This document shows positions 8,351 to 62,151 of a DNA stretch of 64,000 nucleotides, piece by piece (position 1 is the stretch's first letter; every line of letters begins with the position of its first letter). A program made the translations under genes and the position numbers. Source of the stretch: an uncultured Prevotellaceae bacterium (GTDB lineage: Bacteria; Bacteroidota; Bacteroidia; Bacteroidales; Bacteroidaceae). Under the pieces are notes generated by a model that had not been told where the DNA came from, made no database searches, and worked only from the letters and a program-made list of their open reading frames with translations. The DNA is taken from assembly GCA_902769705.1 (NCBI GenBank), contig CACXPX010000004.1, positions 1-64,000 on the forward strand, read 5' to 3'.

Positions 8351-8449
8351 TGACTGTGTCATTAGGGGCTAATGAGCGTGTCATTAAGGGCTTTTGACCG
8401 TGTCATTAGGGGTTAATGAGAACGTCATTAGGGGCTAATGAGCCGCTCA
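8351..8449. repeat. 22-nt periodic array A
   Basis: TGA occurs at 8351, 8373, 8395, 8417 and 8439, and TCA at 8359, 8381, 8403, 8425 and 8447: an exact 22-nt period over five units. The 11-nt core between TCA and TGA is TTAGGGGCTAA or a close variant. TCATTAG-GGG-CTAATGA can therefore form a 7-bp hairpin in each unit. It lies just after the dcu gene, between two convergent genes. Shares its grammar with arrays B-F. Confidence 0.93.
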
Positions 8450-8487
8450 TATATGGCCTATTATAATGGTATCGAAATACCAACATC

Positions 8488-8530
8488 AAAAAGCAGGAAG
8501 GAGTAAAGTTTCCTTCCTGCTTCTTCTTTT
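8488..8530. terminator. Bidirectional terminator between dcu and GH127
   Basis: AAGCAGGAAGGA (8491-8502) and TCCTTCCTGCTT (8511-8522) form a perfect 12-bp stem with an 8-nt loop. It is flanked by an A run on the left and CTTCTTTT on the right, so it can stop transcription from both convergent genes. Confidence 0.85.
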
Positions 8531-8549
8531 GGCCAAAGTGATGGTTGTT

Positions 8550-10985
8550 TTATGGATTCACTTTCCATTCCAACACCCCACCAGACTGGCCGTCGCGGAG
8601 TTTCGCCACTATCTTCAAACCTGTTGTCTCGACAGGACGGAAATCCACGCTGTTGTAGCAGTCTTTCATGACTGTATAAGGCGTATGGTCTTCCACCTCG
8701 CGCCATTCTTCACTTACTCCTTGCCCATCATCCCTCACCACTTTATAATAAAGTGTCCACTTCTCCGGCGTGCGGAAAGAGCCGTCATAATGGTCGAAGT
8801 CGAGCCAATAAACCTGAACGTTCGAGACCTTATACTCGCGGTCGAACTGATAGGCGATAGCCTCTGTTGTGCCACGTTTGAGCCACCAATAATGATAGGG
8901 TTTTGAAGTGTCGCTGCTACGCCGGGGTTCCCATTGGTCGTTCACGCCACCCGCCCACGAATCCGTTGGGGCTGTGGCTGGTGCATCATTCTGAATTGGT
9001 CCACGATTGCTGAACGTTTGCGCCTTCGAAGCGATGGTCTCTAAAGGAATAGGAGTAGCTTGAGCGGGCGAATGGGCAATCCACACCTCCATCTGCTGAG
9101 CTCCACGATTGTTCCATGTGGAATAAGGAATGGCGCGGCAAGTCACATCGCTGATGGTCCCATCCTGCTCCACCTGCTTGGCTGGGGCTTCCAAAACAAC
9201 GACACCGCCCAGCAAACCACTCTCGAAACGGGCGTCTATGGCCGAAGAGTTGAGGATGTACTTATTGAAAACATGGCGGTCGGCTTGGTCATTAGCCTCC
9301 AAGCAATAAACAATCGGACCACGCTCCAGAGCCACCTTCCCACGCAAGTCTTCTGCATTGTCATTGGCCACGATTCGTCTCACTTCCATCGGGAAATCGA
9401 GTTCTACGACATCACCCTTCTTCCACAAGCGGTTGATGACGATATAATCGCGATTCTCGGGATACAATCCTTGCCCGTTCACACTGACGCTATATGGCCG
9501 ACTACGGTCCAAGTAAGTGTAAAGTCCGTTGTTTGTAGGACTGTGTTTCAACCACGAAGGAAGGCGCAATTTCATCGCAAAGCGTCCGCCGCCTTTGTTG
9601 ATTCGTATTCTCACTTTCCCATCCCAGGGATAATCGGTGGTCTGCTCCAGCTCCACTCCGTTGATGACGGCCTTTCCTTGTACATAGAGATTCACGAAGA
9701 TGTCGCGTCCTTGTTTGGCATATATATAATTAGGCACAGAAGCAACAAAGCGCGTGATGTTGCCTGGACAACAGGCACATCCGAACCAACGCTGACGCTC
9801 GTGCTCGCCATCGCTCTCCAACGGGTTGTCATAAAAGAACTTGTCGCCACTCAACGAAACACCACTCAACACATTATTATATAACGCGCGCTCGACAACA
9901 TCCATGTATTTCGACTCGCCCGTAGCGAGAAACATGCGATGGTTCCAATAGACGTTGGCTATTGCCGCGCACGTCTCGCAATAAGCTGTGTGTGAGTTGA
10001 GCTCATAATTGGGACCGAAACCCTCGCCTTGTGCACGGCTTCCGATGCCACCCGTGATGAAAAGTTTCTTCGACGCCATATTGTTCCATATACGCTCCAA
10101 AGCGTGGAAATAGGCCGTGTCACCTGTGAGGGCGGCAACATCAGCCACACCGCTATAGAGATAACCTGCACGAACGGCATGGCCCACAATTTCGTCTTGC
10201 TGAAGAATAGGCTTGTGGTCTTGAGAATAGGCTGAAGGCTGATGGCCATCGGTGCATCGTCCAGTCTCTTCCACAAAATAGCGTGCACCTTCCAGATATC
10301 GCTTTTCGCCCGTTACCTTGTACAACTTGCAAAGCGCCATCTCTATGATGGGATGTCCACCAGGACGATGAATCTGCCCTTCATTCGGACCAAACGTCTT
10401 GCAAACCAAATCGGCGTTCCGTATGGCGACATTCAGAAACGTCTTCTTTCCCGTAGCACGATAGTGGGCCACAGCACTCTCTATCAGATGTCCGCTGTTG
10501 TAGAGCTCATGCGAATTGATTTTCTCCCATTTATGCGTACCCCACCAACCCGACAATCGAGTACAACGGTTCGTCACGCATGTCGTCAGATAGCCGTCGG
10601 GCTCTTGGGCGGCGGCAATAATGCTAATGACCGAATCCAGATAATGGTCGAGCCGAGCATCGTATTTCACAGCCAACGAATAGCTTGCCCCCTCTATCAC
10701 CTTATAGGGGTCGGTATCATCGAACGAAAAGTCACCACGATGCTCTCCCTTCATCAGTCCTCCGGCAATCGCGAAATTGTCGAACCGACCGTTCTTCTCG
10801 CATTCGCGGAAAGCCGAGGGAATACTCACCGTGCGGTTGATTTCTATACGTGGTCTCCAAAAGCCATCGTTCACATGCACCGCCGTAAAGGGCACTTCCT
10901 CTATGGGCATTGGTCGTTGGGCTGCAACAAAAGCGGGGAACGACAGAGTCATTATGCCTGTCATCAACAATCTCATCTTTCTCAT
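8550..10985 (-). CDS. Secreted GH127 beta-L-arabinofuranosidase-type glycoside hydrolase (DUF1680)
   Basis: 811 residues starting MRKMRLLMTGIMTLSF with a signal peptide ending near VAAQ. The (alpha/alpha)-barrel region carries DTDPYKVIEGASY, AAQEPDGYL and SHELYNSGHLIE. The zinc and nucleophile cysteines of the GH127 family are present: ETC in YCETCAAIAN and the CC pair in WFGCACCPGN. In HypBA1 these bind zinc and the second cluster supplies the nucleophilic Cys. The enzyme probably removes L-arabinofuranose from plant glycans or glycoproteins. A C-terminal beta-domain (about 690-811) ends EWKVNP. Divergently paired with a paralogue at 11129. An ATG at 11009 is possible, but 10985 gives a better signal peptide. 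Confidence 0.9.
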   Translation of the reverse strand: MRKMRLLMTGIMTLSFPAFVAAQRPMPIEEVPFTAVHVNDGFWRPRIEINRTVSIPSAFRECEKNGRFDNFAIAGGLMKGEHRGDFSFDDTDPYKVIEGASYSLAVKYDARLDHYLDSVISIIAAAQEPDGYLTTCVTNRCTRLSGWWGTHKWEKINSHELYNSGHLIESAVAHYRATGKKTFLNVAIRNADLVCKTFGPNEGQIHRPGGHPIIEMALCKLYKVTGEKRYLEGARYFVEETGRCTDGHQPSAYSQDHKPILQQDEIVGHAVRAGYLYSGVADVAALTGDTAYFHALERIWNNMASKKLFITGGIGSRAQGEGFGPNYELNSHTAYCETCAAIANVYWNHRMFLATGESKYMDVVERALYNNVLSGVSLSGDKFFYDNPLESDGEHERQRWFGCACCPGNITRFVASVPNYIYAKQGRDIFVNLYVQGKAVINGVELEQTTDYPWDGKVRIRINKGGGRFAMKLRLPSWLKHSPTNNGLYTYLDRSRPYSVSVNGQGLYPENRDYIVINRLWKKGDVVELDFPMEVRRIVANDNAEDLRGKVALERGPIVYCLEANDQADRHVFNKYILNSSAIDARFESGLLGGVVVLEAPAKQVEQDGTISDVTCRAIPYSTWNNRGAQQMEVWIAHSPAQATPIPLETIASKAQTFSNRGPIQNDAPATAPTDSWAGGVNDQWEPRRSSDTSKPYHYWWLKRGTTEAIAYQFDREYKVSNVQVYWLDFDHYDGSFRTPEKWTLYYKVVRDDGQGVSEEWREVEDHTPYTVMKDCYNSVDFRPVETTGLKIVAKLRDGQSGGVLEWKVNP

Positions 10986-11034
10986 ATGTTGTCTTGCTAT
11001 ATGAATCATTCGAGGTAAAATTGGTTTTCAGCCA

Positions 11035-11066
11035 CAAAGATAGGAAAAAATGTCTGATATTTCAAA
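11035..11066 (-). promoter_or_regulatory. Promoter of the minus-strand GH127 gene
   Basis: On the minus strand TTTG (11063-11066) is followed after 20 nt by TATCTTTG (11035-11042), matching both boxes of the Bacteroidetes promoter exactly. The leader to the ATG at 10985 is about 45 nt. Confidence 0.8.
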
Positions 11067-11074
11067 TAAATCAC

Positions 11075-11082
11075 TATCTTTG
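11075..11082 (+). promoter_or_regulatory. -7 element of the plus-strand GH127 gene
   Basis: TATCTTTG is identical to the -7 box of the divergent paralogue. The two promoters lie back to back within 48 bp, so one regulator could act on both. The -33 is weak. Confidence 0.65.
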
Positions 11083-11095
11083 CAATTGTAAATAT

Positions 11096-11128
11096 CACCC
11101 AACACCCTCACCTAACACCTATAACACA
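11096..11128. repeat. Imperfect CACC-type heptamer repeat
   Basis: Four to five units of the form CACCYAN (periods 7, 6, 7, 7) fill the leader immediately before the ATG at 11129. They resemble the CACCYAT heptamers before hisC. Confidence 0.55.
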
Positions 11129-13600: not shown

Positions 13601-13698
13601 AGCTTTATCAAAGCTATGCAATGAGCGTGTCAAAGCTATGCAATGAGGAGGCCAAAGCTATGCAATGAGCGTGTCAAAGCTATGCAATGACGTTGTCA

Positions 13699-13765
13699 AA
13701 ACTGCGAGTAAGTGAGTGGAGAGTCAAGTCAAGTTTGCTTGAACTATCCCGAACGTGAGCAGTTT
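13699..13765. repeat. AAACTGC/GCAGTTT palindromic module, copy 1
   Basis: An outer inverted repeat AAACTGC (13699-13705) / GCAGTTT (13759-13765) encloses an inner TCAAG-TTTG-CTTGA hairpin (13729-13742). The remaining sequence is nearly identical to copy 2. It resembles REP-like extragenic palindromes of Bacteroidales. Confidence 0.8.
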
Positions 13766-13864
13766 CGGCGAAGCCAAAGCTATGGAATGAGCGTGTTAAA
13801 GCTATGCAATGAGCGTGTCAAAGCTATGCAATGAGCGTGTCAAAGCTATGCAATGAGCAGGTCA

Positions 13865-13926
13865 AAACTGCGAGTAAGTGAGTGGAGAGTAGAATTTATT
13901 CTAACTATCCCGAATGTGAGCAGTTT
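13865..13926. repeat. AAACTGC/GCAGTTT palindromic module, copy 2
   Basis: The same outer arms (13865-13871 and 13920-13926) enclose a different inner hairpin, TAGAAT-TT-ATTCTA (13890-13903). The inner stem differs in sequence from copy 1 but still pairs, which points to conserved structure rather than sequence. Confidence 0.8.
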
Positions 13927-13989
13927 CGGCGTAGCCAAAGCTATGCTTTCATCTTGTCAAACAGCATCAATTGTATTAAAACAAAAATG

Positions 13990-14031
13990 AAAACAAAAAG
14001 TGCAACGAAACAAACGTCTCGCTGCACTTTA
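13990..14031 (-). terminator. Terminator of the ppiD-like gene
   Basis: AAAGTGCAACGA (13997-14008) pairs imperfectly with TCGCTGCACTTT (14019-14030). On the minus strand the stem is followed by a T-rich run (the A run at 13992-13999). It lies about 40 bp past the stop of the gene at 14069. Confidence 0.75.
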
Positions 14032-22338: not shown

Positions 22339-22421
22339 CCAAAAGCCTCATCCAACGTTGTCAGAGACCGTCTTTGAGCCGCTCAAAGACCCGTCTTGAC
22401 CGCGCAAAAGGCCGTCTATGG
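22339..22421. repeat. 22-nt periodic array D (short)
   Basis: Two clear units: TCA 22361, TGA 22375, TCA 22383, TGA 22397, with cores GAGACCGTCTT and AAGACCCGTCT. Degenerate slots in the same phase flank them: CCA 22339, CAA 22353, CAA 22405, TGG 22419. The junction GTCTTTGAGC-C-GCTCAAAGAC is a perfect 10-bp inverted repeat, but no T run follows, so it is not an obvious terminator. Lies between the phosphatase-fold gene and secA. Confidence 0.75.
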
Positions 22422-26185: not shown

Positions 26186-26209
26186 TCAGAGGTAGTAGGT
26201 AATCTCGTT

Positions 26210-26237
26210 CCTCATTCCTCATTCCTCATTCCTCATT
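26210..26237. repeat. Heptamer tandem repeat (CCTCATT x4)
   Basis: Four exact heptamers CCTCATT end 28 nt before the ABC-transporter start codon. Same 7-nt period as the arrays at 1085, 2086 and 5674, but with a different unit. Confidence 0.85.
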
Positions 26238-26265
26238 CCTCGAACATATAATACAACAAAAGACT

Positions 26266-29061: not shown

Positions 29062-32000
29062 TTATTTCACTACTTTTTTCTTTCCGTCAATGATATACAC
29101 TCCTTTACGCAGATGGCTGATTCTTCCGTTTTCATCAAGCCTTATTTGCTGACCACTCAGGTTATAAACCTTCTTTTTACCTTCAATGTTCAGCAATTCT
29201 ATATTACGAATTCCAGAAGTTCCATCTTCAAAGACAGCTATCACACTCTTCGCATTTGTTCCCGAGACTGTCATATACGCCTCAAATGGATGTATCCGGC
29301 GAAGGTTCTTTACAAACACACTTCCTTCCGTGTAGCCACCTGTAGCATTTTCAAATTCATTGTCCACATTCAGTGCGTACAATGATGCTGCCTTATCCTT
29401 ATTCATGAAATTAGGAATGAAAGTCTTCTCACCACTCGATGCTGACTTCAAGTCATCAGTAGTCATCACCTTCGCATTCGATGCTGAGAACACCACATTA
29501 CCAGTAATGCAATACTCTTCAACGTACCGCTCATTGTTTGGCATACTAATAATATAAGGTGTATTTGCCTTGATGCTACCCGTCATCACCCATCCGCTAT
29601 TATCCAATTCATACAACCAGAACGGGCGTCCATCACCACCTGTTTGCCAAGTGGCAAACGGCAAGAGCTTTCCTTTTGAGTCAGAAACCTGCTGCACGTC
29701 AAATGGCAAAGCAATCGTCTCCCATCCTCGGCTCTCGCCGAAGCCGGTCATCATTTCAAAACGATGGGCATAGTTGATACTCGATGCCGTGAACTCCTGT
29801 GGGCAATAGAAATTGTTCCCACTCTCAGCATCCGTTAAGATAATCTCTTCTGCCGCACCATTAACGATAACATTCTGGATTCCCGACGGCGCGTATTGCT
29901 TATCCACCACATACATCAACAAGTTTGGGTTCTCCACCCTCGCCGTGAATGCAACAGATGGATTCCACACCACAGCTGCCAAGTCCTTACTACCGCTCAG
30001 AGCATCGTCATCTATGCCAACAACGCGCCAAGTAAAGCCATTCGATGCGAATTCCGTCGGCACAGTCAAACACAAGCCATAGTCCCCACTCGACACCTTC
30101 ACCGTCTTGTCTTCGTATGAGACAACCACGTAATTCACACCATCATTTGTCAATGCCTTAATATCCTCCACAAACACCACCTCCACCGTCGTGTTCGCCG
30201 TGATATTACTAATGGTGTATTGATTGTTAGCCACCTGCGTCGTTACATCCACATCATTCACTTTCACACTTGCAATCCTATAGCCATCACCTGGTGTAAT
30301 AGTTATTGTAGCAGAAGTACCCTCGTTCACCATAAATGAACTTGTTTGTTCTTTGACTGTCACGCCATCATAAGAAACATCTCCATTTCCAGTTGCAGCA
30401 ATCGAAAGCGAATAAGTCACTATTGGAATCTCTTCAAATGTTACAACCACCGTTGTGTTCGCTGTAATGTTATTGATGGTATATTGGTTATTCGAGACTT
30501 GTGAAGTCACATCCACATCGTTCACTTTCACACTAGCTATCCTATAGCCATCACCAGGCACGAATGTCATTGTCACAGCACTTCCTTCATTCACAGTAAA
30601 AGTCTGCGTTCCATTCGTGACATTCTTGTCGTCGTACGAGACTGAGCCTCCACCTAAAACTGATATATTCAAAGTATAAGTCTGAGGAGGTATGGCTTCG
30701 AACGTCACCACCACAGCCGTATTATCCGAGATTTTGCTGATAGTATATTGGTTGTTCGACACTTGTAAGGTTACATCCACGTCATTTACCTTCACGCTTG
30801 CAATCCTATAACCAGCACCAGGGGTTAACACCAAAGTTGCAGAACTCCCTTCTGTCACAGGATACGTACTTGTCCCACTGTTGACACTCTCTCCATTGAA
30901 TGAGACAGATCCTTCACCCGATGCCGTAATAGTCAATGAACATATCTGAAGCGGTTTCTCTTCAAAAGTCACCACTATCCATATGTCTTCCTTGATGTTA
31001 CTAACAACATATTGATTATCCACCACCTCGGATGTCACATCCACATCGTTAACTTTCACACTTGCAATTCTGTAACCTTCGTCAGGTGCAAATGAAATCG
31101 TAGCAGAGACTCCTTCGTTCACAGAATATGACCGATTTAGATTCCTCACTTCATTCCCTTGATAAGTGACAACTCCATATCCTGATGCTGAAACCGTAAG
31201 CGTATGAGTGATTGCGCTAAATGTCACTTCTACTGTTGTATTCTGCGATATGTTACTGATAGTGTATTTGTTATTTGAAACCTGAGAAGTCACATCCGTA
31301 TTATTGACCTTTACACTCGCAAGTCTATAGCCTGCGTTTGGAGTAATTGTCAGTGTGGCCGAACTACCTTCATTCACATAATATGTCTTTGTCCCCTCCG
31401 AGACAGATTCACTATTATACGAAACTGTACCACCAACAGATGCCGAAATGTTTAGTGAATAAGTTAAAGGAGGAATTTCTTCAAACGTAACAATTACATC
31501 TGCATTCTGCGTAATGTTACTGATGGTATATTGATTATTCAACACTTGCGAAGTCACATCCGTATCATTCACTTTCACGCTCACAAGTCTGTAGCCATAA
31601 TTAGGAGTGATGGTCATTGTAGCAGAACTACCCTCATATACACTAAAGCTCCTGCTTCCATTTGTGACATATATACTATTATACAAGACTGTACCACCGG
31701 CTGATGTCGTTATACTCAGCGAGTATGTAGGAATTGCTTCAAACGTCACAACCACTGACGTGTTCTGCGATATATTACTGATGGTATATTGATTATTCGA
31801 CACCTGCGAAGTCACATCCGTATCATTGACTTTCACACTCGCTAACCTGTAACCAATATTTGGAGTAAACGCCAATGTGACAGAACTACCACTATTAACG
31901 CTAAAGTTCTGTGTACCATCCGAAACTTTAACACTATTATACGAGATGGTACCACCAGCAGATGATGTTATACTCAAAGAGTATGATATCATTTGGAACG

Positions 32001-35000
32001 CCACTTCAACAGTCGTATTCTTCGAAATATTACTAATAGTAAATTGATTATTCGACACTTGCGAAGTTACATCCGTATTATTCACTTTCACACTCGCAAG
32101 TCTATAACCAGAGTTGGGAGTGAATGTCAACGTCACTGAGCTACCCTCATTGACACTAAAATTCTGTGTTCCATTCGCAATAGATGTACCATTATACGAA
32201 ATAGAGCCACTACCAGAGGCAGATATATTAAGTGAGTAAGTGATGGCCTCGAACGTCACTACCACTGTGGTGTTCTGGGATATTTTACTAATGGTATATT
32301 TGTTATTCGACACCTGAGATGTAACATCGGTGTTATTAACCTTCACACTCTTAAGCCTATTTCCTGTATTGCACGTAAATGTCAATGTCACAGCACTTCC
32401 TTCATTCACAGTAAAAGTCTGCGTTCCGTTCGTGATATTTGTACCATCATACGTGACTGAACCACCGCCAGAGGCAGATACACTTAGTGAGTAATTTATG
32501 GCCTCAAACGTCGCTACCACTATTGTGTTCTGGGATATATTGCTAATGGTATATCGGTTATTTGATACTTTCGAGGTCACATCCGTATTATTGACCTTAA
32601 CGCTCGCAATCTTATAACCCAGGTTCGGAGTAAATGTCAAAGTCGCTGTGCTTCCCTTTTGAATGAAATAAGAATTCGTTTTGTTACTAAAACTCACGTC
32701 ATTATAGGTAACAAATCCATTTCCTGATGCTGTAATGCTGAGAATGTATGAGGAATTTACTTCAACAATTTCTTTGAAATATGTACTCCAGCTGGAAAGC
32801 GCTTGATAAGCACTCACTGTTCCATTAGGCACATGCAATACAGCATTAGAAGGGATTCCTCCAAAAGCATAATTTGATATTGAAGAAGGAGAAGCAATCT
32901 CAGAAACGACCAATACCAAACTACTGCAATTATTAAAAGCATAATTGCCTATGCTGATCACACTGCTCGGTATGGTAATAGTAGTGAGACTGCTACATGC
33001 CGCAAATGCATAATTGCCGATGCTTGTCAAAGTATTAGGGAGGGTCACTGAAGAAAGACTCGTGCAATATTGGAAAGTATATAACCCCGTATTCTTCACA
33101 CTGCTCGGGATGGTAATTGAAGTCAGACCTGTACAACCAGAGAAGGCACCTTCTATGTTTGTCACACTGCTTGGTATGGTGATTGTAGTCAGGCTACTGC
33201 ACCCAGCGAAAGCTCCCTCAATGTTTGTCACAGTGTTCGGGATGACCGTGTTTTTACAACCTATAATGAGCGCATTGGTCGCTGTTTCAATGACGCCGTT
33301 ACAATTATTGCGAGAGTCATATTCAGGGTTCCCACTCTCCACTTTGATAGAGGACAGCCCACTACAGCCATAGAAAGCATTTCCGGCAATGCTCGTCACA
33401 CTTTTGGGGATGGTGATTGAGGTCAGGCTACTACAATTGTAGAAAGCACTCATTCCTATAACCTCCACACTATTAGGAATAGATATAGATGCAAGATTGC
33501 TACAACCAAAGAAAACGCTTTCATCAATGATAGTAATGCCGTTCGGAATATTCACAGAAGTCAAACTACTACACTTCAAAAACGCCTGAACTCCAATATT
33601 ATTCACGCTATTCGGAATGGTTACCGATATCAAGCCACTAGAATTATAAAAAGCATTTTTTCCAATAGATGTGACAGTAAAATTGGTACCATCATAAGAA
33701 ATTGTATTAGGAATCGTGACATTTCCAGAGTAACTATTCCCCGATGGACTTTGCATCACTTCAACAGCAATGCCTCCTATGGAAAAATCCTCGCCTAGAA
33801 CTTCATAATAAATTCCATTAACCACAAAAAAGCCCTCAATCTCCCACATATGTTCTACAATATCCTTGAAATAAGCTCTCCAAGCTTGATAGGCGTTCTT
33901 AGTCCCTTTAGGAACTAGCAATACTGCATTAGAAGGAATTCCACTGAAAGCGCCATTTGATATTGAAAAAGGAGTAGTAATCTCAGAAACAATCAACTCC
34001 AAACTACTGCAATTATTAAAAGCATATTGACCGATTGATTTCACACTGCTGGGAATGGTAACAGAGGTGAGACTGGAACAGCCATAAAACGCATTAGCAC
34101 CGATGCTGGTCACAGAGTTGGGGATAGTCACGGAGGTGAGACTGGAACAGCCATATAACGCATTAGCACCGATGCTGGCCACAGAGTTGGGGATAGTCAC
34201 GGAGGTGAGGCCTGTACAACCATCGAACGCAAAGCTGCCAATGCTGGTCACGGAATTGGGGATAACCAAATCTTTCACTTCCTCGCCATTCAAATATAAA
34301 TGGTGAGCATAGCTTAGCGGATTAGAGCCACTATTATTAAATGTAAACCTACACCATGCTGCCAAGTCAGATATATGTACGGAGGTCAGGCTGGAGCATC
34401 CATAGAACGCATTGTTGCCAATACTTGTCACAGATTCGGGGATGGTGACGGAGGTTAGGCCTGTGCAACCATCGAACGCAAAGTTGCCAATGCTGGTCAC
34501 AGAGTTGGGGATAGTCACGGAGGTGAGGCCTATACAACCATCCAACACATAGTTGCCAATACTTGTCACAGAGTTGGGAACGACCAAATCTTTCACTTCC
34601 TCCCCGTTCAAAAATAAATGGTGAGCATAGTAAAGTGGGTTTGACATATTACCCATGAATGAGATCTTGAACCATAATGCCAAATCAGTAATATAGACAG
34701 AGGTAAGGTTGGAGCAATTTTCGAACGCATTAGAACCGATGAAGGTTATGGTTTGGGGGATGGTGATGGAGGTAAGACCACTGCAATTTGCAAAAGCAGA
34801 ATTACAAATAGTGGTAACAGAATATTGGACTCCATTATAAAGAACAGTATTAGGAATTTCAATAATACCAGTGTAGTTACTTTGAATCACTCCAACTGTA
34901 TTAGAAGATTCCACGTAATAAGATATTCCATTTGATTCAAAAGCGTATGATTGGATGGATACAAATAAAAAGACTTGTATCAATCGCCAGACTTTGTTAA

Positions 35001-35010
35001 ATTTACTCAT
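29062..35010 (-). CDS. Giant surface protein: BspA leucine-rich repeats, ten InlB B-like repeats, C-terminal sorting domain
   Basis: About 1980 residues. After a signal peptide (MSKFNKVWRLIQVFLFVSIQSYAFE), residues about 30-740 are LRR_5/BspA repeats (C.SLTSVTIPNSVTSIG.NAF.GC type). Ten repeats of about 80 residues follow (about 750-1620), each with Y.L.I.ASG.G.V.Y.......F.V.EGS..T.T.TP..GYR.ASVKVN..DVTSQV.NNQYTISNI..NT.V.VTFE, close to the divergent InlB B-repeat. Next comes a WETIALPFDV module, also in the protein at 3-1097. The C-terminus (VYNLSGQQIRLDENGRIS...GVYIIDGKKVVK-like) is a T9SS type-A-like sorting domain, suggesting export by the type IX system and surface attachment. Earlier ATGs at 35028 and 35070 are possible. 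Confidence 0.88.
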   Translation of the reverse strand: MSKFNKVWRLIQVFLFVSIQSYAFESNGISYYVESSNTVGVIQSNYTGIIEIPNTVLYNGVQYSVTTICNSAFANCSGLTSITIPQTITFIGSNAFENCSNLTSVYITDLALWFKISFMGNMSNPLYYAHHLFLNGEEVKDLVVPNSVTSIGNYVLDGCIGLTSVTIPNSVTSIGNFAFDGCTGLTSVTIPESVTSIGNNAFYGCSSLTSVHISDLAAWCRFTFNNSGSNPLSYAHHLYLNGEEVKDLVIPNSVTSIGSFAFDGCTGLTSVTIPNSVASIGANALYGCSSLTSVTIPNSVTSIGANAFYGCSSLTSVTIPSSVKSIGQYAFNNCSSLELIVSEITTPFSISNGAFSGIPSNAVLLVPKGTKNAYQAWRAYFKDIVEHMWEIEGFFVVNGIYYEVLGEDFSIGGIAVEVMQSPSGNSYSGNVTIPNTISYDGTNFTVTSIGKNAFYNSSGLISVTIPNSVNNIGVQAFLKCSSLTSVNIPNGITIIDESVFFGCSNLASISIPNSVEVIGMSAFYNCSSLTSITIPKSVTSIAGNAFYGCSGLSSIKVESGNPEYDSRNNCNGVIETATNALIIGCKNTVIPNTVTNIEGAFAGCSSLTTITIPSSVTNIEGAFSGCTGLTSITIPSSVKNTGLYTFQYCTSLSSVTLPNTLTSIGNYAFAACSSLTTITIPSSVISIGNYAFNNCSSLVLVVSEIASPSSISNYAFGGIPSNAVLHVPNGTVSAYQALSSWSTYFKEIVEVNSSYILSITASGNGFVTYNDVSFSNKTNSYFIQKGSTATLTFTPNLGYKIASVKVNNTDVTSKVSNNRYTISNISQNTIVVATFEAINYSLSVSASGGGSVTYDGTNITNGTQTFTVNEGSAVTLTFTCNTGNRLKSVKVNNTDVTSQVSNNKYTISKISQNTTVVVTFEAITYSLNISASGSGSISYNGTSIANGTQNFSVNEGSSVTLTFTPNSGYRLASVKVNNTDVTSQVSNNQFTISNISKNTTVEVAFQMISYSLSITSSAGGTISYNSVKVSDGTQNFSVNSGSSVTLAFTPNIGYRLASVKVNDTDVTSQVSNNQYTISNISQNTSVVVTFEAIPTYSLSITTSAGGTVLYNSIYVTNGSRSFSVYEGSSATMTITPNYGYRLVSVKVNDTDVTSQVLNNQYTISNITQNADVIVTFEEIPPLTYSLNISASVGGTVSYNSESVSEGTKTYYVNEGSSATLTITPNAGYRLASVKVNNTDVTSQVSNNKYTISNISQNTTVEVTFSAITHTLTVSASGYGVVTYQGNEVRNLNRSYSVNEGVSATISFAPDEGYRIASVKVNDVDVTSEVVDNQYVVSNIKEDIWIVVTFEEKPLQICSLTITASGEGSVSFNGESVNSGTSTYPVTEGSSATLVLTPGAGYRIASVKVNDVDVTLQVSNNQYTISKISDNTAVVVTFEAIPPQTYTLNISVLGGGSVSYDDKNVTNGTQTFTVNEGSAVTMTFVPGDGYRIASVKVNDVDVTSQVSNNQYTINNITANTTVVVTFEEIPIVTYSLSIAATGNGDVSYDGVTVKEQTSSFMVNEGTSATITITPGDGYRIASVKVNDVDVTTQVANNQYTISNITANTTVEVVFVEDIKALTNDGVNYVVVSYEDKTVKVSSGDYGLCLTVPTEFASNGFTWRVVGIDDDALSGSKDLAAVVWNPSVAFTARVENPNLLMYVVDKQYAPSGIQNVIVNGAAEEIILTDAESGNNFYCPQEFTASSINYAHRFEMMTGFGESRGWETIALPFDVQQVSDSKGKLLPFATWQTGGDGRPFWLYELDNSGWVMTGSIKANTPYIISMPNNERYVEEYCITGNVVFSASNAKVMTTDDLKSASSGEKTFIPNFMNKDKAASLYALNVDNEFENATGGYTEGSVFVKNLRRIHPFEAYMTVSGTNAKSVIAVFEDGTSGIRNIELLNIEGKKKVYNLSGQQIRLDENGRISHLRKGVYIIDGKKKVVK

Positions 35011-35090
35011 GGTTCTTATAGTTTTCATCGTTTTCAATAGACCTCCTCGTCTTTTCATGCATTTCCTCATGACGCATACACATTTATGGT

Positions 35091-41024: not shown

Positions 41025-41213
41025 AGAAATAATTCTGAAATATCACTAATTTTTTGCAAAAAACTTTTAGGGAAAATTTATTATTGATGAAAAATCATGA
41101 CAAAAGTTTGTTGACTTTTACTTGCATTCTAGAACAAAATAGAGTGTGAATATTTCATCTAAATGTTCTGGGTTTTTGCGAATTCAACATTAGAATTTGG
41201 TACATGTATGATG

Positions 41214-41304
41214 TGAGACTGTCAGGTATAACATGTAAGCTGCTCAGGTATAACACCTAAGCGCTTTACATCTTATGTGTGACAGGGTCAGAAGCCACAA
41301 GTGA
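41214..41304. repeat. 22-nt periodic array E
   Basis: Slots in exact 22-nt phase: TGA 41214, TCA 41222, TAA 41236, TCA 41244, TAA 41258, TTA 41266, TGA 41280, TCA 41288, TGA 41302. Every slot is a stop codon on one strand or the other. Cores are GGTATAACATG, GGTATAACACC and CATCTTATGTG. About 70% identical over four units to array F at 52846, so the two are homologous. Confidence 0.92.
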
Positions 41305-41573
41305 CAATTCAAAAGGATATCTTTTGTTGGCTGAGAGAATGTAAAGAAAACGGAAGTGGTTAAGAATCAACAACTTCTAGAAATGAAGATTTTTGGCATT
41401 TTTTGCACCTAAGTCTGTCTCGATTCAAAAGAAGGCCGTTATTTGAGGCCAAAATTCGGAATTTATTTTACAAATTAGGAGTTTAGTGTCAGGGGCAAGA
41501 CATAGGAGCTTGACAATTCCTTTTAATATATATTCGTTTTAAAACTATTTCTTTAAGTGCGACGGGGTGGTGC

Positions 41574-51984: not shown

Positions 51985-52668
51985 CTATTCGCCCTCTTGT
52001 AGCTTCTTCAGCAACTCCTCGCCGCCTTTGGCGTTAGCAAACAAGCCATTAGCTGCGGCAGTTGTCTCCTCCTCTTGGCGTGCTGCCTCTTTGGCTTCGG
52101 CCTCACGGCGCTCGTTGTCACGCTTCTGCTGGCTCTTCTTGGCCACTCCGGCTTTCTTAGGAGCCATATAGAGGAACATCTTCTTGCCTTCAAGCTTGGG
52201 CAGCTGCTCAACCTTTCCGTATTCCTCCAAATCGTTAGCAAAACGTAGCAACAACACTTCGCCTTGTTCTTTGAACAGAATCGAGCGGCCGCGGAAAAAC
52301 ACGTATGCCCTCACCTTGTTGCCCTCTTCCAGGAACTCTTTCGCATGCTTCAGCTTGAACTGATAGTCGTGCTCGTCGGTTTGGGGACCGAAACGAATTT
52401 CCTTGACTTCCACCTTCACCTGCTTGGCCTTCATCTCCTTTTGATGCTTCTTCTGCTGGTAAAGGAATTTTGAATAGTCGATGAGACGACAAACAGGTGG
52501 TTGCGCATTAGGTGAAATCTCAACGAGATCCACACCCTGCTGGCGTGCCATATCAAGTGCCTGTCGTGTAGGGACTACCTCAGAACCGCCGTCGCCTACA
52601 ATGCGGACTTCCCTAACGTGAATTTGTTCATTCACGCGGTACTGATTTTTCATTTTGTCATTCTTCAT
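51985..52668 (-). CDS. infC: Translation initiation factor IF-3
   Basis: 227 residues. N-domain ([20 protein letters not shown], about 6-75) and C-domain ([31 protein letters not shown], about 88-170) are complete. A C-terminal extension rich in Arg/Glu/Ala (about 180-227) goes beyond the E. coli protein and is common in Bacteroidales. IF-3 controls start-codon selection. The start at [12 protein letters not shown] (52668) follows a perfect promoter; a TTG one codon earlier is less likely. Confidence 0.97.
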
Positions 52669-52705
52669 CAAACTATTTTAAGTCACTATTTTTGCTAAAC
52701 GGCTG

Positions 52706-52845: not shown

Positions 52846-52950
52846 TCACATGTATGTTCTGAGCCCGTCAGATGTGGCATGTAAGCCCCTTAGAGTTATC
52901 ATCTGAGCGCCTCAGGTGATATGTGTGACAGGGTCAGATGATGCATGTGA
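52846..52950. repeat. 22-nt periodic array F
   Basis: Slots in exact 22-nt phase: TCA 52846, TGA 52860, TCA 52868, TAA 52882, TTA 52890, TGA 52904, TCA 52912, TGA 52926, TCA 52934, TGA 52948; one more TCA in phase at 52824. All are stop triplets on one or the other strand. Cores: CATGTATGTTC, GATGTGGCATG, GAGTTATCATC, GGTGATATGTG, GATGATGCATG. Homologous to array E. It lies between thrS and the infC promoter. Confidence 0.93.
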
Positions 52951-53021: not shown

Positions 53022-54986
53022 TTAATCGTTCGGTTTCAGATTGGTAGCCTTCAGCATTTCCGTCACCTCGTCGTTAATGCGCTGGGCAAACTCTTCCATC
53101 TTCATCGTGGCCTGCTCGCCTCCACCCTGCTTACGCATGGATACAAGGCCTTCGGCCATTTCTTGCTCACCCACGATGACCATGTAGGGAACACGTTTCA
53201 ATTCGTTATCGCGAATCTTGCGGCCAATCTTCTCGTTGCGGTCGTCGAGCGATGCACGAACGCCTTGTTCTCCGAGATACGAAGCCACTTTCTTGGCGTA
53301 GTCGTTATACTTCTCCGAGATGGGAAGGATAGCCACCTGCTCGGGTGTGAGCCAAAGTGGGAAATGACCAGCCGTGTGCTCGATGAGAACGGCGGTGAAA
53401 CGCTCCATAGAGCCGAACGGAGCACGGTGAACCATCACGGGCGTCTGCTTCGAGTTGTCCTCGGCGGTATATTCGAGGCGGAAACGCTGGGGCAGGTTAT
53501 AGTCAACCTGAATAGTTCCGAGCTGCCAACGGCGTCCGATAGCGTCTTTCACCATGAAGTCGAGCTTCGGTCCATAGAAGGCAGCTTCGCCATATTCAAC
53601 CTTAGCCTCGAGGCCTTTCTCCTTACAAGCATCGATGATAGCTTGTTCAGACTCAGCCCAAACCTCATCCGAACCGATATACTTCTCGGTGTCCTTCGGG
53701 TCGCGCAAGGAAATCTGAGCCTCAACGTTCTCGAAATTGAAGATGGAGAACACGGCCTTGATGATGTCCATCACACGCATGAACTCGCCTTTCACCTGAT
53801 CAGCACGGCAGAAGATATGGGCATCGTCCTGAGTGAAGGAGCGCACACGAGTGAGTCCGTGCAACTCGCCCGACTTCTCGTAACGATAGACAGTACCAAA
53901 CTCGGCAATGCGGAGAGGCAGGTCTTTATACGAACGGGGCTTCCAAGCGAAAATCTCGCAATGGTGAGGACAGTTCATGGGCTTCAGCATGTATTCCTCT
54001 TCCTCCTCCGGAGTGGTGATGGGACGGAATGCATCTTTCGAATAATGTGCATAGTGGCCTGATGTCACATAGAGGTTCTTGCCACCAATGTGCGGTGTGA
54101 TAACTTCCTGATAGCCAAAGTTCTTCTGGATTTTGCGCAACATATCCTGCAAGCGAAGACGCAGGTCGGTTCCTTTCGGCAACCAGATGGGGAGACCCTT
54201 ACCAACACGGTCGGAGAACATGAAGAGCTCCATCTCCTTGCCAATCTTGCGGTGGTCGCGTTTCTTGGCTTCCTCGAGCATGACGAGATACTCGTCGAGC
54301 ATCTTCTTCTTGGGGAATGAAACGCCATAGAGGCGCTGCATCTGCTCGCGCTCGGCATCACCACGCCAGAAAGCACCTGCCACGCTGGTGAGCTTCACGG
54401 CTTTGATGAGACCTGTGGAGACAAGGTGAGGACCGCGGCAAAGGTCGGTGAAGTTGCCTTGCGTATATGTGGAGATGGTTCCGTCCTCGAGGTCTTGCTC
54501 GATGTGCTCGCACTTGTAGGTCTGCCCATCAGCGGCAAACTCTTTCAAAGCATCGGCCTTGGCCACTTCGCGACGCACAACTGGCTCATCCTTGCGAGCC
54601 AGCTCAAGCATCTTTGCCTCGATTGTCGGAAAATCGCTTTCCTTTACCATTTCACCGCCCGGAAGCAGCACATCGTAGAAGAAACCGTTGTCTACGGCTG
54701 GTCCGAAGCCGAATTGCACGCCAGGATAGAGCTCTTGCAAAGCCTCGGCCAGCAAGTGGGCAGAGGTGTGCCAGAACGTGTGCTTGCCCTCGTCATCGTC
54801 AAACTTGTAAAGTGCGATGGAGGCATCGGCATTAATAGGGCGGTTGAGTTCAACTGTCTCGCCATTGACACCGCAAGATACAACGTTGCGGGCGAGAGCC
54901 GGCGAGATGCTCTCGGCGATTTGATAACCAGTAACGCCCTCTGCATATTCACGCACAGAGCCGTCTGGGAATGTGATTTTTACCAT
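53022..54986 (-). CDS. thrS: Threonyl-tRNA synthetase
   Basis: 654 residues, standard length. N-terminal TGS domain (about 1-62), editing domain with [11 protein letters not shown] (about 73) and a second zinc-site region, class II catalytic core with [10 protein letters not shown] (about 338) and [16 protein letters not shown], and a C-terminal anticodon-binding domain (about 540-645). Charges tRNA-Thr and edits Ser-tRNA-Thr. It has its own perfect promoter at 55017-55048. Confidence 0.98.
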
Positions 54987-55796: not shown

Positions 55797-55820
55797 CGTC
55801 CAAATCACGATTGGCAAGTG

Positions 55821-55928: not shown

Positions 55929-56627
55929 TTACTCCTCCTCGGGTGTGATGAGTTTGTAGCCTTTGCCGTGAATGTTGATGATCTCAATCTGGTCGTCAGC
56001 CTTCAAATGCTTGCGCAATTTGGTGATGTAAACATCCATTGAGCGGGCGTTGAAATAGTTGTCGTCAATCCAGATGGTCTTCAAAGCAAAGTCGCGCTGA
56101 AGGATTTCGTTAGCATGCGAGCAAAGCAGAGCCAACAGTTCGTTCTCCTTGGTGGTGAGCTTGGTCTGCTTGTCACCGATGGTCAGCAACTGCTTCTGAG
56201 TGTCGAACGTGAAGCGGCCGATACGATAAACCGATGCTTCCTTGTTCTTCTTGCCACGTACGCGACGCAGAATAGCCTCAATACGAAGCACGAGCTCTTC
56301 CATCGAGAATGGCTTGGTGATGTAGTCGTCGGCACCCAGTTTGAAACCTTCGAGAATATCATCTTTCAAGATCTTAGCCGTGAGGAAGATGATAGGCATT
56401 TCAGCATTGGCTTGTCTGATTTCCTGAGCCAACGTAAAGCCGTCCTTCTTAGGCATCATCACATCGAGAACACAAATATCGAACTTGGTCTTGAGGAAAG
56501 CCTTGTAGCCAGCCTCACCATCGGGGCAGAGTTCTGTGGTGTAACCCTTAGCCTGCAGATACTCGCGAAGCAACATACCGAGGTTTTCGTCGTCTTCGCA
56601 CAACAAGATTTTCAGTTTCTCATCCAT
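55929..56627 (-). CDS. rprY: OmpR-family response regulator, RprY-like
   Basis: 232 residues. Receiver domain (about 5-118) with the acidic pair ED near 14, phosphoacceptor Asp in CVLDVMMP (about 56), Thr in FLTAK and Lys in YITKPF. A winged-helix DNA-binding domain follows (about 135-230: LTTKENELLALLCSHANEIL and YNARSMDVYITKLRKHLK-like). The sequence is close to Bacteroides RprY. Cotranscribed with the kinase gene 102 nt upstream. The ATG at 56627 excludes an unlikely extension. Confidence 0.93.
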   Translation of the reverse strand: MDEKLKILLCEDDENLGMLLREYLQAKGYTTELCPDGEAGYKAFLKTKFDICVLDVMMPKKDGFTLAQEIRQANAEMPIIFLTAKILKDDILEGFKLGADDYITKPFSMEELVLRIEAILRRVRGKKNKEASVYRIGRFTFDTQKQLLTIGDKQTKLTTKENELLALLCSHANEILQRDFALKTIWIDDNYFNARSMDVYITKLRKHLKADDQIEIINIHGKGYKLITPEEE

Positions 56628-56729
56628 AATCGTTTGCCTCCCCCTACTCCTCTTTTGGAAGGTAGTGTCCGCCGGTTTGTGGGAGTTTGATGGCGGACGG
56701 ATTGTTATCACTATTTTATATTTTTCTCT

Positions 56730-58292: not shown

Positions 58293-58418
58293 GATGGCAA
58301 AGATAGGAAATTAACTTAAATCATTAACAAGATTATGTTAATTATTTATTCGATATTCAATAATTTTAACTATAATGTAATAATTTAATTAAGTATATAC
58401 AACTAAATTGTATAAAGA

Positions 58419-58458
58419 ATATCCCCGACAACCTAATTGTAGTAGGCGTCGGGGATAT
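58419..58458 (-). terminator. Hairpin after the EF-G2-like gene
   Basis: ATATCCCCGAC (58419-58429) pairs perfectly with GTCGGGGATAT (58448-58458), and the loop contains a further CCTA/TAGG pair. On the minus strand only a weak T-rich stretch follows, so termination strength is uncertain. The rest of 58293-58514 is AT-rich with no visible signal. Confidence 0.65.
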
Positions 58459-58514
58459 GTAATGATGTTTCAAAGGAATAGAACCTGAAACACCTTTTTC
58501 GAGACAAGTTGTCC

Positions 58515-60674: not shown

Positions 60675-60770
60675 ATCAAAAGTTTTTAGTTGTTAGTGAT
60701 ATTCTCTCTAAGGTCTCTTTAGATTTAGGCGTGGCGAAATGTTAAATTCGCCCGTTTCGAAAATCGTCGC

Positions 60771-60801
60771 TAAAATTACGGAATTTTTAGCAAATAGCAA
60801 A
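60771..60801 (-). promoter_or_regulatory. Promoter of the EF-G2-like gene
   Basis: On the minus strand TTTG (60798-60801), 19-nt spacer, TAATTTTA (60771-60778, one mismatch in the -7). A weaker -7 fits a promoter that needs an activator. Confidence 0.6.
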
Positions 60802-60841
60802 AGAAACCTCCGAAAACAATCTATATTTTAAAACATATTAG

Positions 60842-60849
60842 TAATTTTG
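60842..60849 (+). promoter_or_regulatory. -7 element for hemW
   Basis: TAATTTTG, 19 nt before the ATG at 60869. No good -33 was found. Confidence 0.55.
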
Positions 60850-60868
60850 TGGCAAAAATTGATGATTT

Positions 60869-62023
60869 ATGTCAGGTTTATACATTCATATTCCCTTTTG
60901 CAAAAGTCGATGTATCTATTGCGGCTTCTATAGTACCACGCTTCTCTCTTGGCAAGACCGCTATGTGGAAGCGCTATGTAGGGAAATGCAATTGAGACTA
61001 AAGGACGGAAAACTCCCCTATGAGCCTCATAACAAGCTGACAACCATATACTTGGGTGGTGGAACGCCCTCGCAACTCTCACCTTCGAACCTTGAAAAAC
61101 TCTTTATATATATAAATAAGGTGTATGGTGGAATCTTGGAAGAATCAGAGGGAAAAAACGAGTTGGAAATCACGATGGAATGCAACCCCGACGACATCAG
61201 CGACTCGTTTTGCGACTTGCTAAGACGCCTGCCCGTGAACCGCATTTCGATGGGAGCACAGACATTTTCAGACGAGCGCCTGAGATTCCTTCATCGCCGC
61301 CATTCGTCCCATCAAGTAGGTGAAGCCGTCAACAAATTAAGAGCCGCCGGCATCAACAACATCAGCATCGACCTGATGTTCGGCTTCCCTGGCGAAACGC
61401 TTGAAGAATGGGAAAACGACATCAAGCAAGCTATCAAGCTACAAGTGGAACACATTTCCGCCTATAGCCTCATGTATGAAGAGGGAACGCCGTTATACGA
61501 GCTTTCCATCCGAAATCCGCAATTCAAGAAGACGGACGAGGACGTGGAGCGAAGCATGTATGAAACTCTTATCGACCATCTGGAAGCGGCCGGCTTCGAG
61601 CATTACGAAATCAGCAACTTTGCCCTACCCGGCAGACGCTCAAAACACAACAGCAGCTATTGGCAAGGCATTCCCTATATGGGAATTGGAGCCGCCGCAC
61701 ATAGCTACGACCTCAAAACTCGCTCGTGGAACGTGGCCGATTTGAGGAAATACATAGAATCGATTGAGCAAGGCGAATTGCCTCAAGAAGTAGAATCAAT
61801 AGACGAAACAACTCGATACAACGACTTGATAACCACAGCCTTACGCACGCAAGAAGGAATACTCACCAACGAAGTGGAACCCCGCTTCCGCGATTATCTT
61901 CTGAAAAATGCGCAACCTCATATCGAACGCCATCTGCTTACGCTCGAAGAAGGAAGGCTCCATCTCACACGCGAAGGACTTTTTGTGAGCGACGACATCA
62001 TGTCCGACTTGGTTTTCGTTTAA
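60869..62023 (+). CDS. hemW: HemW-like radical SAM protein
   Basis: 384 residues. The radical SAM cluster motif CKSRCIYCGF (CxxxCxxC) is near residue 10, followed by LGGGTPSQLS and the HemN/HemW-shared GAQTFSDERLRFLHRRH. It lacks the extra N-terminal region of true HemN, and the end HNSSYWQGIPYMGIGAAAHSY is typical of HemW. HemW is a heme chaperone that loads heme onto respiratory enzymes and is often misannotated as coproporphyrinogen oxidase. Transcribed alone, followed by array C. Confidence 0.92.
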   Translation: MSGLYIHIPFCKSRCIYCGFYSTTLLSWQDRYVEALCREMQLRLKDGKLPYEPHNKLTTIYLGGGTPSQLSPSNLEKLFIYINKVYGGILEESEGKNELEITMECNPDDISDSFCDLLRRLPVNRISMGAQTFSDERLRFLHRRHSSHQVGEAVNKLRAAGINNISIDLMFGFPGETLEEWENDIKQAIKLQVEHISAYSLMYEEGTPLYELSIRNPQFKKTDEDVERSMYETLIDHLEAAGFEHYEISNFALPGRRSKHNSSYWQGIPYMGIGAAAHSYDLKTRSWNVADLRKYIESIEQGELPQEVESIDETTRYNDLITTALRTQEGILTNEVEPRFRDYLLKNAQPHIERHLLTLEEGRLHLTREGLFVSDDIMSDLVFV

Positions 62024-62046
62024 ACGAAGCCGAAAATAAAGGTTTG

Positions 62047-62151
62047 TCATTGACGGCTTTTGACCGTCTCATTTGTGGCTTTTAACCTTGTCATTTGTGG
62101 CTTTTGACCGTCTCATTTGTGGTCTTTGACAACCTCATTTGTGGCTTTTGA
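62047..62151. repeat. 22-nt periodic array C
   Basis: TCA at 62047, 62069, 62091, 62113, 62135; TGA at 62061, 62105, 62127, 62149 and TAA at 62083: an exact 22-nt period over five units. Core TTTGTGGCTTT with small changes. It lies between hemW and the HD-protein promoter, in the only plus-plus intergenic gap of this part. Confidence 0.93.

What the first reader, a model, noticed from the sequence alone, without database searches (positions are those of the whole stretch)
8351..62151. A dispersed family of exact 22-nt periodic intergenic arrays with a common grammar
Six separate intergenic regions (A 8351-8449, B 13608-13959, C 62047-62151, D 22339-22421, E 41214-41304, F 52846-52950) repeat with an exact 22-nt period. 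The common plan is S-TCA-N11-TGA-S-NNN, with TTA and TAA as the commonest variants. The 11-nt core is shared inside an array but unrelated between most arrays (TTAGGGGCTAA, AAGCTATGCAA, TTTGTGGCTTT and others). So the frame is conserved genome-wide while the content is array-specific. None lies in a gene. The period is two DNA turns, which would suit a protein binding one face. I do not recognise this as REP, BIME, ERIC, BOX or CRISPR.
Basis: partly seen in the sequence, partly recalled or inferred. Interest (0 to 1): 0.88.

Follow-up and report, generated by a model that had tools for sequence, protein, structure and literature searches.

The report
Phased 22-base palindrome arrays between genes
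A rumen-type Prevotella genome carries about a hundred short between-gene arrays of palindromic sites spaced exactly 22 bases apart, and many other species of its genus carry the same ruler with different letters, which looks like rows of docking sites for a fast-changing DNA-binding protein.

Summary
The arrays are real. In 464 kb of this genome, 22 nt (with its double, 44) is the only repeat period from 12 to 59 seen more than once. 27 arrays were found there, none in a long gene. A model search gives at least 101 places genome-wide. 13 of the 27, E included, lie in a dispersed ~390-bp intergenic element; free-standing blocks also occur, most often of five units.

The deeper rule is not TCA/TGA. 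It is a 17-bp dyad site plus a 5-bp spacer. A model of that geometry matched 62 of 119 genomes of the genus (50 at E <= 0.001) but none of 246 others in an order-wide sample. Core letters differ between species, some shared by a few. Among 22 element copies, TCA/TGA diversity is 0.03 against 0.23 in the flanks, a sign of selection.

Best explanation: side-by-side operator sites, two helical turns apart, for a dimeric DNA-binding protein whose specificity turns over between species, spread by non-autonomous mobile elements. The protein is not identified. REP/RAYT, CRISPR and six-frame stops are contradicted. Ten literature searches listed no description.

The parts
8337..8463 (.). Array A: six 22-nt units (first and last degenerate), starting at the end of a DcuA/DcuB-type transporter gene (6882-8342)
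13608..13690 (.). Array B1: four units of core AAGCTATGCAA, 7 nt after the stop of a GH127 gene
13774..13856 (.). Array B2: four units of the same core, separated from B1 by an unrelated duplicated insert (166-nt super-period 13609-13946)
22339..22421 (.). D: degenerate remnant, one good unit (TCAGAGACCGTCTTTGA) and damaged neighbours
   Evidence: lag-22 identity 0.46; model R1, E 0.13
41087..41475 (+). Copy of the ~390-bp dispersed intergenic element that contains array E (left end 41087-41155, right part 41345-41475)
41200..41304 (.). Array E: five units (four perfect) inside the element copy
52846..52950 (.). Array F: five perfect units between infC and thrS; the same intergene of species G128 lacks it
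62047..62151 (.). Array C: five perfect free-standing units of core TTTGTGGCTTT; a search with 83 nt of it lists 49 matches in the genome (itself and weak overlapping ones included)

Best explanation
Each array is a row of about four to five 17-bp dyad sites placed side by side with 5-bp spacers, so that their centres lie 22 bp (about two helical turns) apart on one face of the DNA. The most likely job is to let a dimeric, sequence-specific DNA-binding protein (helix-turn-helix type is my guess) bind as a cooperative row. The protein's specificity, and with it the core letters, turns over between species, while the geometry (dimer footprint plus dimer-dimer contact) stays fixed. The rows are copied around the chromosome as parts of non-autonomous, MITE-like intergenic elements (~390 bp in this genome) or as stand-alone blocks. 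Shown: the geometry, copy number, intergenic position, selection-like conservation of the anchors, cores that differ between species, concentration in one genus, and presence/absence at one orthologous intergene. Inferred: protein binding, cooperativity, the kind of protein, and mobility.
For: Period 22 (18 segments; 44 has 9) is the only period from 12 to 59 seen more than once in 464 kb. A letter-agnostic dyad scan of the same 464 kb gives 12 hits (10 distinct places) at period 22 and 9 at 33, its 1.5-fold, against 0-1 at each other period from 17 to 40. At least 101 distinct places genome-wide. In 22 copies of the element, picked from 30 loci fetched by whole-element similarity and not by the grammar, mean diversity is 0.03 at TCA/TGA, 0.061 at G7/C11, 0.212 at positions 4-6 and 12-14, 0.326 inside spacers and 0.23 in the flanks (permutation p about 1e-4). 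Model R1 (four 7-3-7 dyads, 5-nt spacers) matches 62 of 119 genomes of the genus, own included, at E <= 0.01 and 50 at E <= 0.001, and only the own genome of 247 in the order sample at E <= 0.001. Cores differ between species: TAAAAGG.TTA.CCTTTTA, CAAAACC.GTA.GGTTTTG, CGAAACG.GCA.CGTTTCA, TAAATTC.ACT.GAATTTA, TTATATG.TAT.CATATAA; array C itself has no DNA match in 19 relatives although neighbouring gene DNA has in some. Arrays lie in tandem, convergent and divergent gaps. Different cores sit in one register, e.g. C2:85110. The element alignment shows almost no RNA covariation (term -0.24). At two orthologous element copies 5 of 210 array positions differ against 32 of 547 element-flank positions. 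Array F is absent from the thrS-infC intergene of G128.
Against: No binding protein, transposase or autonomous copy was found; the 13 right ends seen in the 464-kb sample all belong to array-bearing elements. Terminal inverted repeats are weak and no target-site duplication was seen by eye. In TCA-type units positions 4-6 and 12-14 are complementary in only 0.35-0.45, little above the shuffled 0.25-0.40, so the dyad is imperfect here. The five-unit count is not independent evidence: 10 of the 14 sampled arrays with five perfect units are copies of one element. C/G spacer edges fail in G186 (0 of 8) and are weak in G006 (9 of 18), G003 (3 of 6), G140 (4 of 6), G010 (29 of 40) and G236 (6 of 8). 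57 of 119 genomes of the genus show no match, though strict filters were used and at most 38 candidates per genome were scored. In 400 kb of five relatives the dyad scan gives only 3 hits at 22 against 2 at 21 and 0-1 elsewhere, and G007, without an R1 match, has a dyad array at 21 nt. The other-species arrays were selected by a model that rewards dyads at 22 nt, so their dyads and period are not independent evidence.
Confidence: 0.5

Rival explanations
1. Dispersed selfish minisatellite/MITE with no function for the array: palindromic units multiply by slippage and conversion inside non-autonomous elements and are carried along.
For: 40 places with the element or part of it; multi-copy array-bearing elements in G025 and G220 as well; presence/absence at the thrS-infC intergene; P. 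gingivalis BrickBuilt, a minisatellite inside a MITE, is a precedent (PMC4596501: abstract, sections 5 and 8 and part 1 of section 7 read).
Against: Anchors vary seven to eight times less than flanks while spacers in the same copies diverge; unrelated cores keep one register in composite arrays; the same geometry appears with unrelated letters in many species.
Confidence: 0.25
2. RNA-level function: tandem 7-bp hairpins with 3-nt loops in transcripts, bound by an RNA-binding protein or tuning mRNA ends.
For: Most units read from other species are near-perfect 7-3-7 palindromes, though chosen by a dyad model; arrays A and B1 start within 10 nt of a stop codon, so they may lie in 3' untranslated regions.
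Against: TCA-type cores are hardly complementary at positions 4-6/12-14; the covariation term of the element alignment is only -0.24 (one strand folded); arrays occur in gaps of every gene orientation; no Rfam match in the window.
Confidence: 0.1
3. REP/BIME-type palindromes spread by a RAYT (Y1 transposase) acting on single-strand hairpins.
For: Intergenic, palindromic, differing between species, clustered and mosaic, as REP/BIME are described to be (passages of PMC6006769; partly recalled).
Against: Own genome (99.4% complete, at least 101 array places) has no Y1_Tnp (PF01797) match at E <= 1e-4; array-positive genomes have it in 26 of 62, negative in 30 of 57, Fisher p = 0.27.
Confidence: 0.05
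4. Six-frame translational stop arrays: with a 22-nt period, TGA/TAA and TCA/TTA put stops in all frames of both strands.
For: 49 of 51 own arrays have stops in all six frames.
Against: Cores of other species such as CAAAACC...GGTTTTG or CGAAACG...CGTTTCG carry no stop at the anchor positions; spacer edges and G7/C11 are conserved too.
Confidence: 0.02

Closest known systems
BrickBuilt minisatellite/MITE of Porphyromonas gingivalis (PMC4596501)
   Same: A Bacteroidales relative (recalled); intergenic; tandem repeat of similar length (23 nt) between non-repetitive leader and tail; multi-copy; species-limited.
   Different: 23 nt against 22; 1 to 22.8 repeats against mostly four to six; terminal repeats like IS5-family elements (GAGACC...), not seen here; reported from P. 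gingivalis and P. gulae; no dyad grammar shared across species with different letters is reported in the parts read.
REP/BIME palindromic elements with RAYT transposases (PMC6006769 passages)
   Same: Intergenic, palindromic, differing between species, mosaic and multi-copy.
   Different: No Y1 transposase found in this genome and no association across the genus; direct tandem array with an exact 22-nt register; TCA-type units are poor hairpins.
Tandem phage-type operators (lambda-like 17-bp operators with short spacers; recalled, no call)
   Same: 17-bp dyad sites, 5-7-bp spacers, neighbouring dimers on nearly one face of the helix.
   Different: At least 101 chromosomal places instead of one control region; array-sized blocks copied around the genome; no repressor identified; none of three viral contigs hit by a core pattern holds an array.
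Plasmid iterons of about 22 bp (recalled, no call)
   Same: Direct repeats near 22 bp bound by a protein.
   Different: Dispersed over 39 contigs and dyad-symmetric; no plasmid record matches the element.

Membership tests
REP/BIME with RAYT | Y1 (HuH) transposase encoded in the genome or associated across genomes | tested here: not met
   PF01797: no match in own genome; 26 of 62 array-positive against 30 of 57 array-negative genomes
REP/BIME with RAYT | Unit forms a stable single-strand hairpin | tested here: inconclusive
   Own TCA-type units: pairs 4/14, 5/13 and 6/12 complementary in only 0.35-0.45. Own TTACC and TAAAATA units, and most units of other species, are palindromic (the latter selected by a dyad model)
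BrickBuilt | 23-nt tandem unit | tested here: not met
   Period is 22; no segment at lag 23
BrickBuilt | IS5-like terminal repeats (GAGACC...) | tested here: not met
   Element ends read TGAAAAAACACGACAAA... and ...AGAATTTTCTTGACAA
MITE | Multi-copy, short, non-coding, sharp shared ends | tested here: met
   40 places listed (query copy included), 28 of them end to end and 25 of these 364-366 nt long, 72-88% identical to the query; alignment stops abruptly at both ends
MITE | Terminal inverted repeats and target-site duplications | tested here: inconclusive
   Only a weak inverted similarity of the ends (AATT.TCTGAA); no duplications seen by eye
MITE | Autonomous partner with the same ends | tested here: inconclusive
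   None in 464 kb (13% of the genome); the rest was not examined for it
MITE | Presence/absence of the element at orthologous sites | tested here: inconclusive
   One site only, and for a free-standing array: F in own thrS-infC intergene (350 nt), absent in G128; gain is not told from loss. No such site was found for the 390-bp element
CRISPR | Repeats of about 21-48 nt with unique spacers of about 26-72 nt (sizes recalled) | tested here: not met
   17-nt units and 5-nt spacers
Described RNA family (Rfam 15) | Match at gathering score | tested here: not met
   0 matches in the window
Operator array for a DNA-binding protein | A protein binds the dyads | not testable with these tools
   No binding data; indirect evidence only

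The most novel reading that the evidence does not exclude
A class of chromosomal element not described in the papers searched: a ruler of about four to five dyad sites at 22-bp pitch in Prevotella, whose letters are replaced between species while the geometry is kept, implying a genome-wide DNA-binding system (nucleoid-organising, silencing or anti-mobile-element) that coevolves with its own sites as fast as an arms-race system.
Probability: 0.35. Interest if true: 0.92.

Novelty: new variant of a known kind. Interest (0 to 1): 0.8.

Why it matters
Dispersed bacterial repeats are usually recognised by their letters; here the conserved thing is a ruler. If the rows are protein platforms, one genus holds many natural re-codings of one binding geometry, which would let one read how a DNA-binding protein and a hundred or so of its sites change specificity together. 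It also gives a testable handle on chromosome organisation or element control in an abundant gut and rumen genus.

Tried and rejected
Six-frame stop arrays: first attractive because 22 mod 3 = 1 and TAA/TGA alternate, rejected by species whose units hold no stop. RNA structure: fold_alignment of one strand gives a covariation term of -0.24 and 5 of 67 pairs with any double change; Rfam had no match in the window. REP/RAYT: rejected. Phage or plasmid origin: the element pattern has no match in viral contigs and the element none in plasmids; a core pattern hit 3 viral contigs, none with even a two-unit chain in the part held; the annotated phage collection was not searched. Gene orientation: 15 tandem, 7 convergent and 5 divergent of 27, against 58, 20 and 39 of all gaps of 120 nt or more; not tested formally, and the crude ORF caller mislabels some gaps (array A lies before the convergent GH127 gene but was counted as tandem). 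Autonomous copy: none among end hits in 464 kb; a lone middle piece (C2:49364-49422) and a weak left-like piece (C2:115609-115665) were not pursued. Shared k-mers in flanks of other-species arrays: no 8-, 9- or 10-mer clearly exceeded the shuffle maxima; the non-A/T-run ones were promoter-like TAnnTTTGCA and GATAATCA types. IHF sites, a motif chosen after seeing these k-mers: WATCAANNNNTTR is enriched beside arrays of other species (19 found, 14 species, shuffle mean 2.6, maximum 6) but not in the own genome (2 against 1.55); kept as a lead. Empty sites of the 390-bp element in six relatives: flanking genes were not found side by side. Strain comparison: named contigs L249 and L251 match own loci at 96-97%, but over a 19.5-kb window query their genomes are 63-94% identical, the longer matches 65-78%, so only two orthologous elements could be compared, with few changes. 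Literature: ten searches listed nothing on these arrays; only open-licence papers are held.
Full report
OBSERVATION. The arrays exist as described, with corrections. The three-unit pattern TYA-N11-TRA at 22-nt phase, up to one mismatch, has 17 matches in the window and none in 100 dinucleotide-preserving shuffles. The genome G000 has 3.6 Mb in 72 contigs and the window is C4:1-64000. I took 400 kb of two other contigs as an unselected sample. In sample plus window (464 kb) 18 segments repeat at lag 22 and 9 at lag 44, and no other lag from 12 to 59 has more than one. 20 chains of three or more units are present, none in 20 shuffled sets. With looser rules 27 arrays were listed. None overlaps an ATG/GTG ORF of 150 aa or more except 6 nt at the start of A. 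Array D is a remnant.

ANATOMY IN THIS GENOME. 14 of the 27 sampled arrays have exactly five perfect units, none has more; but 10 of these 14 are copies of the element described below, so they are not independent. Of eight arrays fetched as best matches to array C (array C included), none with shared flanks, seven have five units and one four, counting units with at least five of six anchor bases. In 51 arrays, many fetched by similarity, 35 have five perfect units. Spacer edges are C or G in 92% and 94% of 220 spacers; outside the first and last unit stand mostly TTG and CAA, more weakly so in other species. The TCA-type core is mostly NNN-G-NNN-C-NNN: positions 7 and 11 are complementary in 0.65 (0.44 expected), positions 4-6 and 12-14 barely above expectation. 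A search with 83 nt of array C lists 49 matches in the genome, with 40 of 143 candidates scored and some weak overlapping matches included. Beside the TCA type, the same 17+5 geometry occurs with TTACC...GGTAA (C2:21296, C3:175124) and TAAAATAAATTATTTTA (next to C2:85110, 101208, 206570; also C2:56965 and 122122), and TCA and TAAAATA units share one array in register. A letter-agnostic scan for dyads gives 12 hits, 10 distinct places, at period 22 and 9 hits at period 33; every other period from 17 to 40 has 0 or 1. Most of these are TTACC and TAAAATA types, because TCA-type dyads are imperfect. The model search counts 129 matches, 101 distinct places, with 150 of 1169 candidates scored; known arrays B and E are not among them, so this is a lower bound.

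CARRIERS. Many arrays, E among them, lie inside a dispersed element of about 390 bp. The search with one 366-nt copy listed 40 places (itself included) plus weaker reverse matches, only 40 of 190 candidates being scored; 28 of the 40 are end to end, 25 of these 364-366 nt long; identity to the query is 72-88%. Ends are sharp. 13 such elements lie in the 464-kb sample, 11 of them with both ends recognised; each of the 13 right ends found goes with an array. Other arrays (A, B, C, F and those of L002-L007 and L009) share no flanks much longer than the array itself with the loci held at that time, apart from the duplicated insert inside B. In G025 and G220, arrays also sit in multi-copy elements, and the right end of the G025 element (AGAATTATCTTTACAA) resembles the own one (AGAATTTTCTTGACAA).

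SELECTION. In 22 element copies (of 30 loci fetched by whole-element similarity), mean pairwise diversity is 0.03 at the TCA/TGA anchors, 0.061 at G7/C11, 0.078 at the centre, 0.212 at positions 4-6 and 12-14, 0.173 at spacer edges, 0.326 inside spacers and 0.228/0.230 in left/right flanks; permutation p about 1e-4. The copies share descent, so p is a guide only. At two orthologous copies in named contigs (L249, L251), 5 of 210 array positions and 32 of 547 element-flank positions differ; too few to test anchors.

OTHER SPECIES. Array C has no DNA match in 19 relatives although neighbouring gene DNA has in some. Stretches of five relatives showed 22-nt dyad arrays with other letters in two, G010 and G006; a further locus gave one in G077. 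In the same 400 kb the dyad scan gives 3 hits at period 22 and 2 at 21. A covariance model R1 of four 7-3-7 dyads with 5-nt spacers was built from nine arrays, six own and one each of G010, G077 and G006. At E up to 0.01 it matched 62 of 119 genomes of the genus (own included; completeness 90 or more), 50 of them at E up to 0.001. At E up to 0.001 it matched only the own genome of 247 in the order sample, at least three of which are of the own family, and 40 of 298 in the family sample, 35 of the same genus and 5 of three other genera (how many of the 298 are of the genus is not shown). Limits: strict filters; at most 38, 18 and 15 candidates scored per genome. Four near relatives searched apart all matched: G180 55, G173 31, G055 19, G186 7 matches. 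I read one array from each of 27 other species plus 40 more that I picked from the best-scoring rows, 67 in all (the script label '26 other species' is a slip, searches count 27). Units per array: 4 in 48, 5 in 16, 6 in 2, 7 in 1 (the model requires four). Position 1 is C 0.50 / T 0.48, position 17 A 0.48 / G 0.49, position 3 A 0.95, position 15 T 0.96. Dyads and period are selected for by the model; the Y/R ends and C/G spacer edges less so. Cores form families, some shared by several species (AAAAGG...CCTTTT in G010, G073, G086; AAAACC...GGTTTT in G006, G025, G102, G187), others seen in one. C/G edges reach 80% in 21 of 27 species; G186 has 0 of 8, G006 9 of 18, G003 3 of 6, G140 4 of 6, G010 29 of 40, G236 6 of 8. 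G180, the closest of 200 sampled species by one gene (87%), has the cores TAATATA.TGA.TATATTA and TAAATTA.AGT.TAATTTA. G007, without an R1 match, has a dyad array at 21 nt, so 22 is not universal.

TURNOVER AT ONE SITE. Array F lies between infC (51985-52671) and thrS (53022-54986). None of the nine closest thrS loci shows a TCA-type chain. In G128, infC also follows thrS, the infC upstream region aligns, and the array is missing; the gap is 350 nt here and about 190 nt there. This shows gain or loss, not which.

WHERE IT OCCURS BY NAME. An element pattern hit three: a Prevotella sp. MAG and a Bacteroidaceae MAG from sheep rumen and an uncultured Bacteroidales MAG. L249 and L251 match own loci at 96-97%, though their genomes are mostly 65-78% identical to the window in the longer matches, so these contigs may be mis-binned. 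'Rumen-type' rests on these names.

MECHANISM. Two-turn spacing, dyads, occurrence in every gene orientation, anchor conservation and lack of RNA covariation favour binding of a dimeric protein to double-stranded DNA, cooperatively along a row. Cores that differ between species with constant geometry fit a protein whose specificity changes while its footprint does not. Protein binding, cooperativity and mobility are inferred. No partner was found. A REP/RAYT system is contradicted: no PF01797 match in the own genome, 26 of 62 against 30 of 57 across the genus, p = 0.27.

KNOWN OR NEW. The nearest described thing I read is BrickBuilt of P. gingivalis (PMC4596501; abstract, sections 5 and 8, part 1 of section 7): 23-nt repeats, 1 to 22.8 copies, IS5-like ends. 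Its text mentions 22-nt tandem repeats in strain W83 without sequence, so a link cannot be excluded. Of PMC5771137, PMC10969869 and PMC6006769 I read passages only. None of the ten searches listed a description of these arrays, in a library that lacks most subscription journals. I file it as a new variant of dispersed intergenic repeat; a categorically new class stays possible.

Noticed in passing
window 13698-13770 and 13864-13931: Inserts in array B (AAAACTGCGAGTAAGTGAGTGG...CCCGAATGTGAGCAGTTTCGG) with GCAGTTT/AAACTGC inverted ends, duplicated with the array at a 166-nt super-period; no other copy in 464 kb.
   Followed up: partly
window 1085-1137 and 26204-26241; G009 stretches L091-L094: Runs of 7-nt units (AATTGAT/TGTCAAC type, CTCATTC); G009 has several such arrays.
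   Followed up: no
200-nt flanks of arrays in 14 other species, e.g. the G086 and G220 loci: IHF-like consensus WATCAANNNNTTR enriched beside arrays of other species (19 found, shuffle mean 2.6); the own element has the related palindrome TTGATAATCAACGACTTCC. Not enriched in the own genome.
   Followed up: partly
L031 and other element copies, after the array: Inverted repeat CGGAAGTCGTTGA-N3-TCAACGACTTCCG in the consensus of the 390-bp element copies.
   Followed up: no
L097 about 12200 (G007:C5 about 52200): Dyad array at 21-nt period (AATACTCCAGGAGTAATTCTC), perhaps a related array with 4-nt spacers.
   Followed up: no
L128 (G102) and L174 (G187): Nearly the same array with the same outer bases in two species; G187's copy lacks one unit.
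   Followed up: no
L249 and L251: Contigs 96-97% identical to own loci inside MAGs that otherwise differ: mis-binned contigs or recent transfer.
   Followed up: partly
window 29062-35070: 2002-aa ORF with internal DNA repeats of 66-69 nt and about 255-318 nt, possibly a large repetitive surface protein.
   Followed up: no
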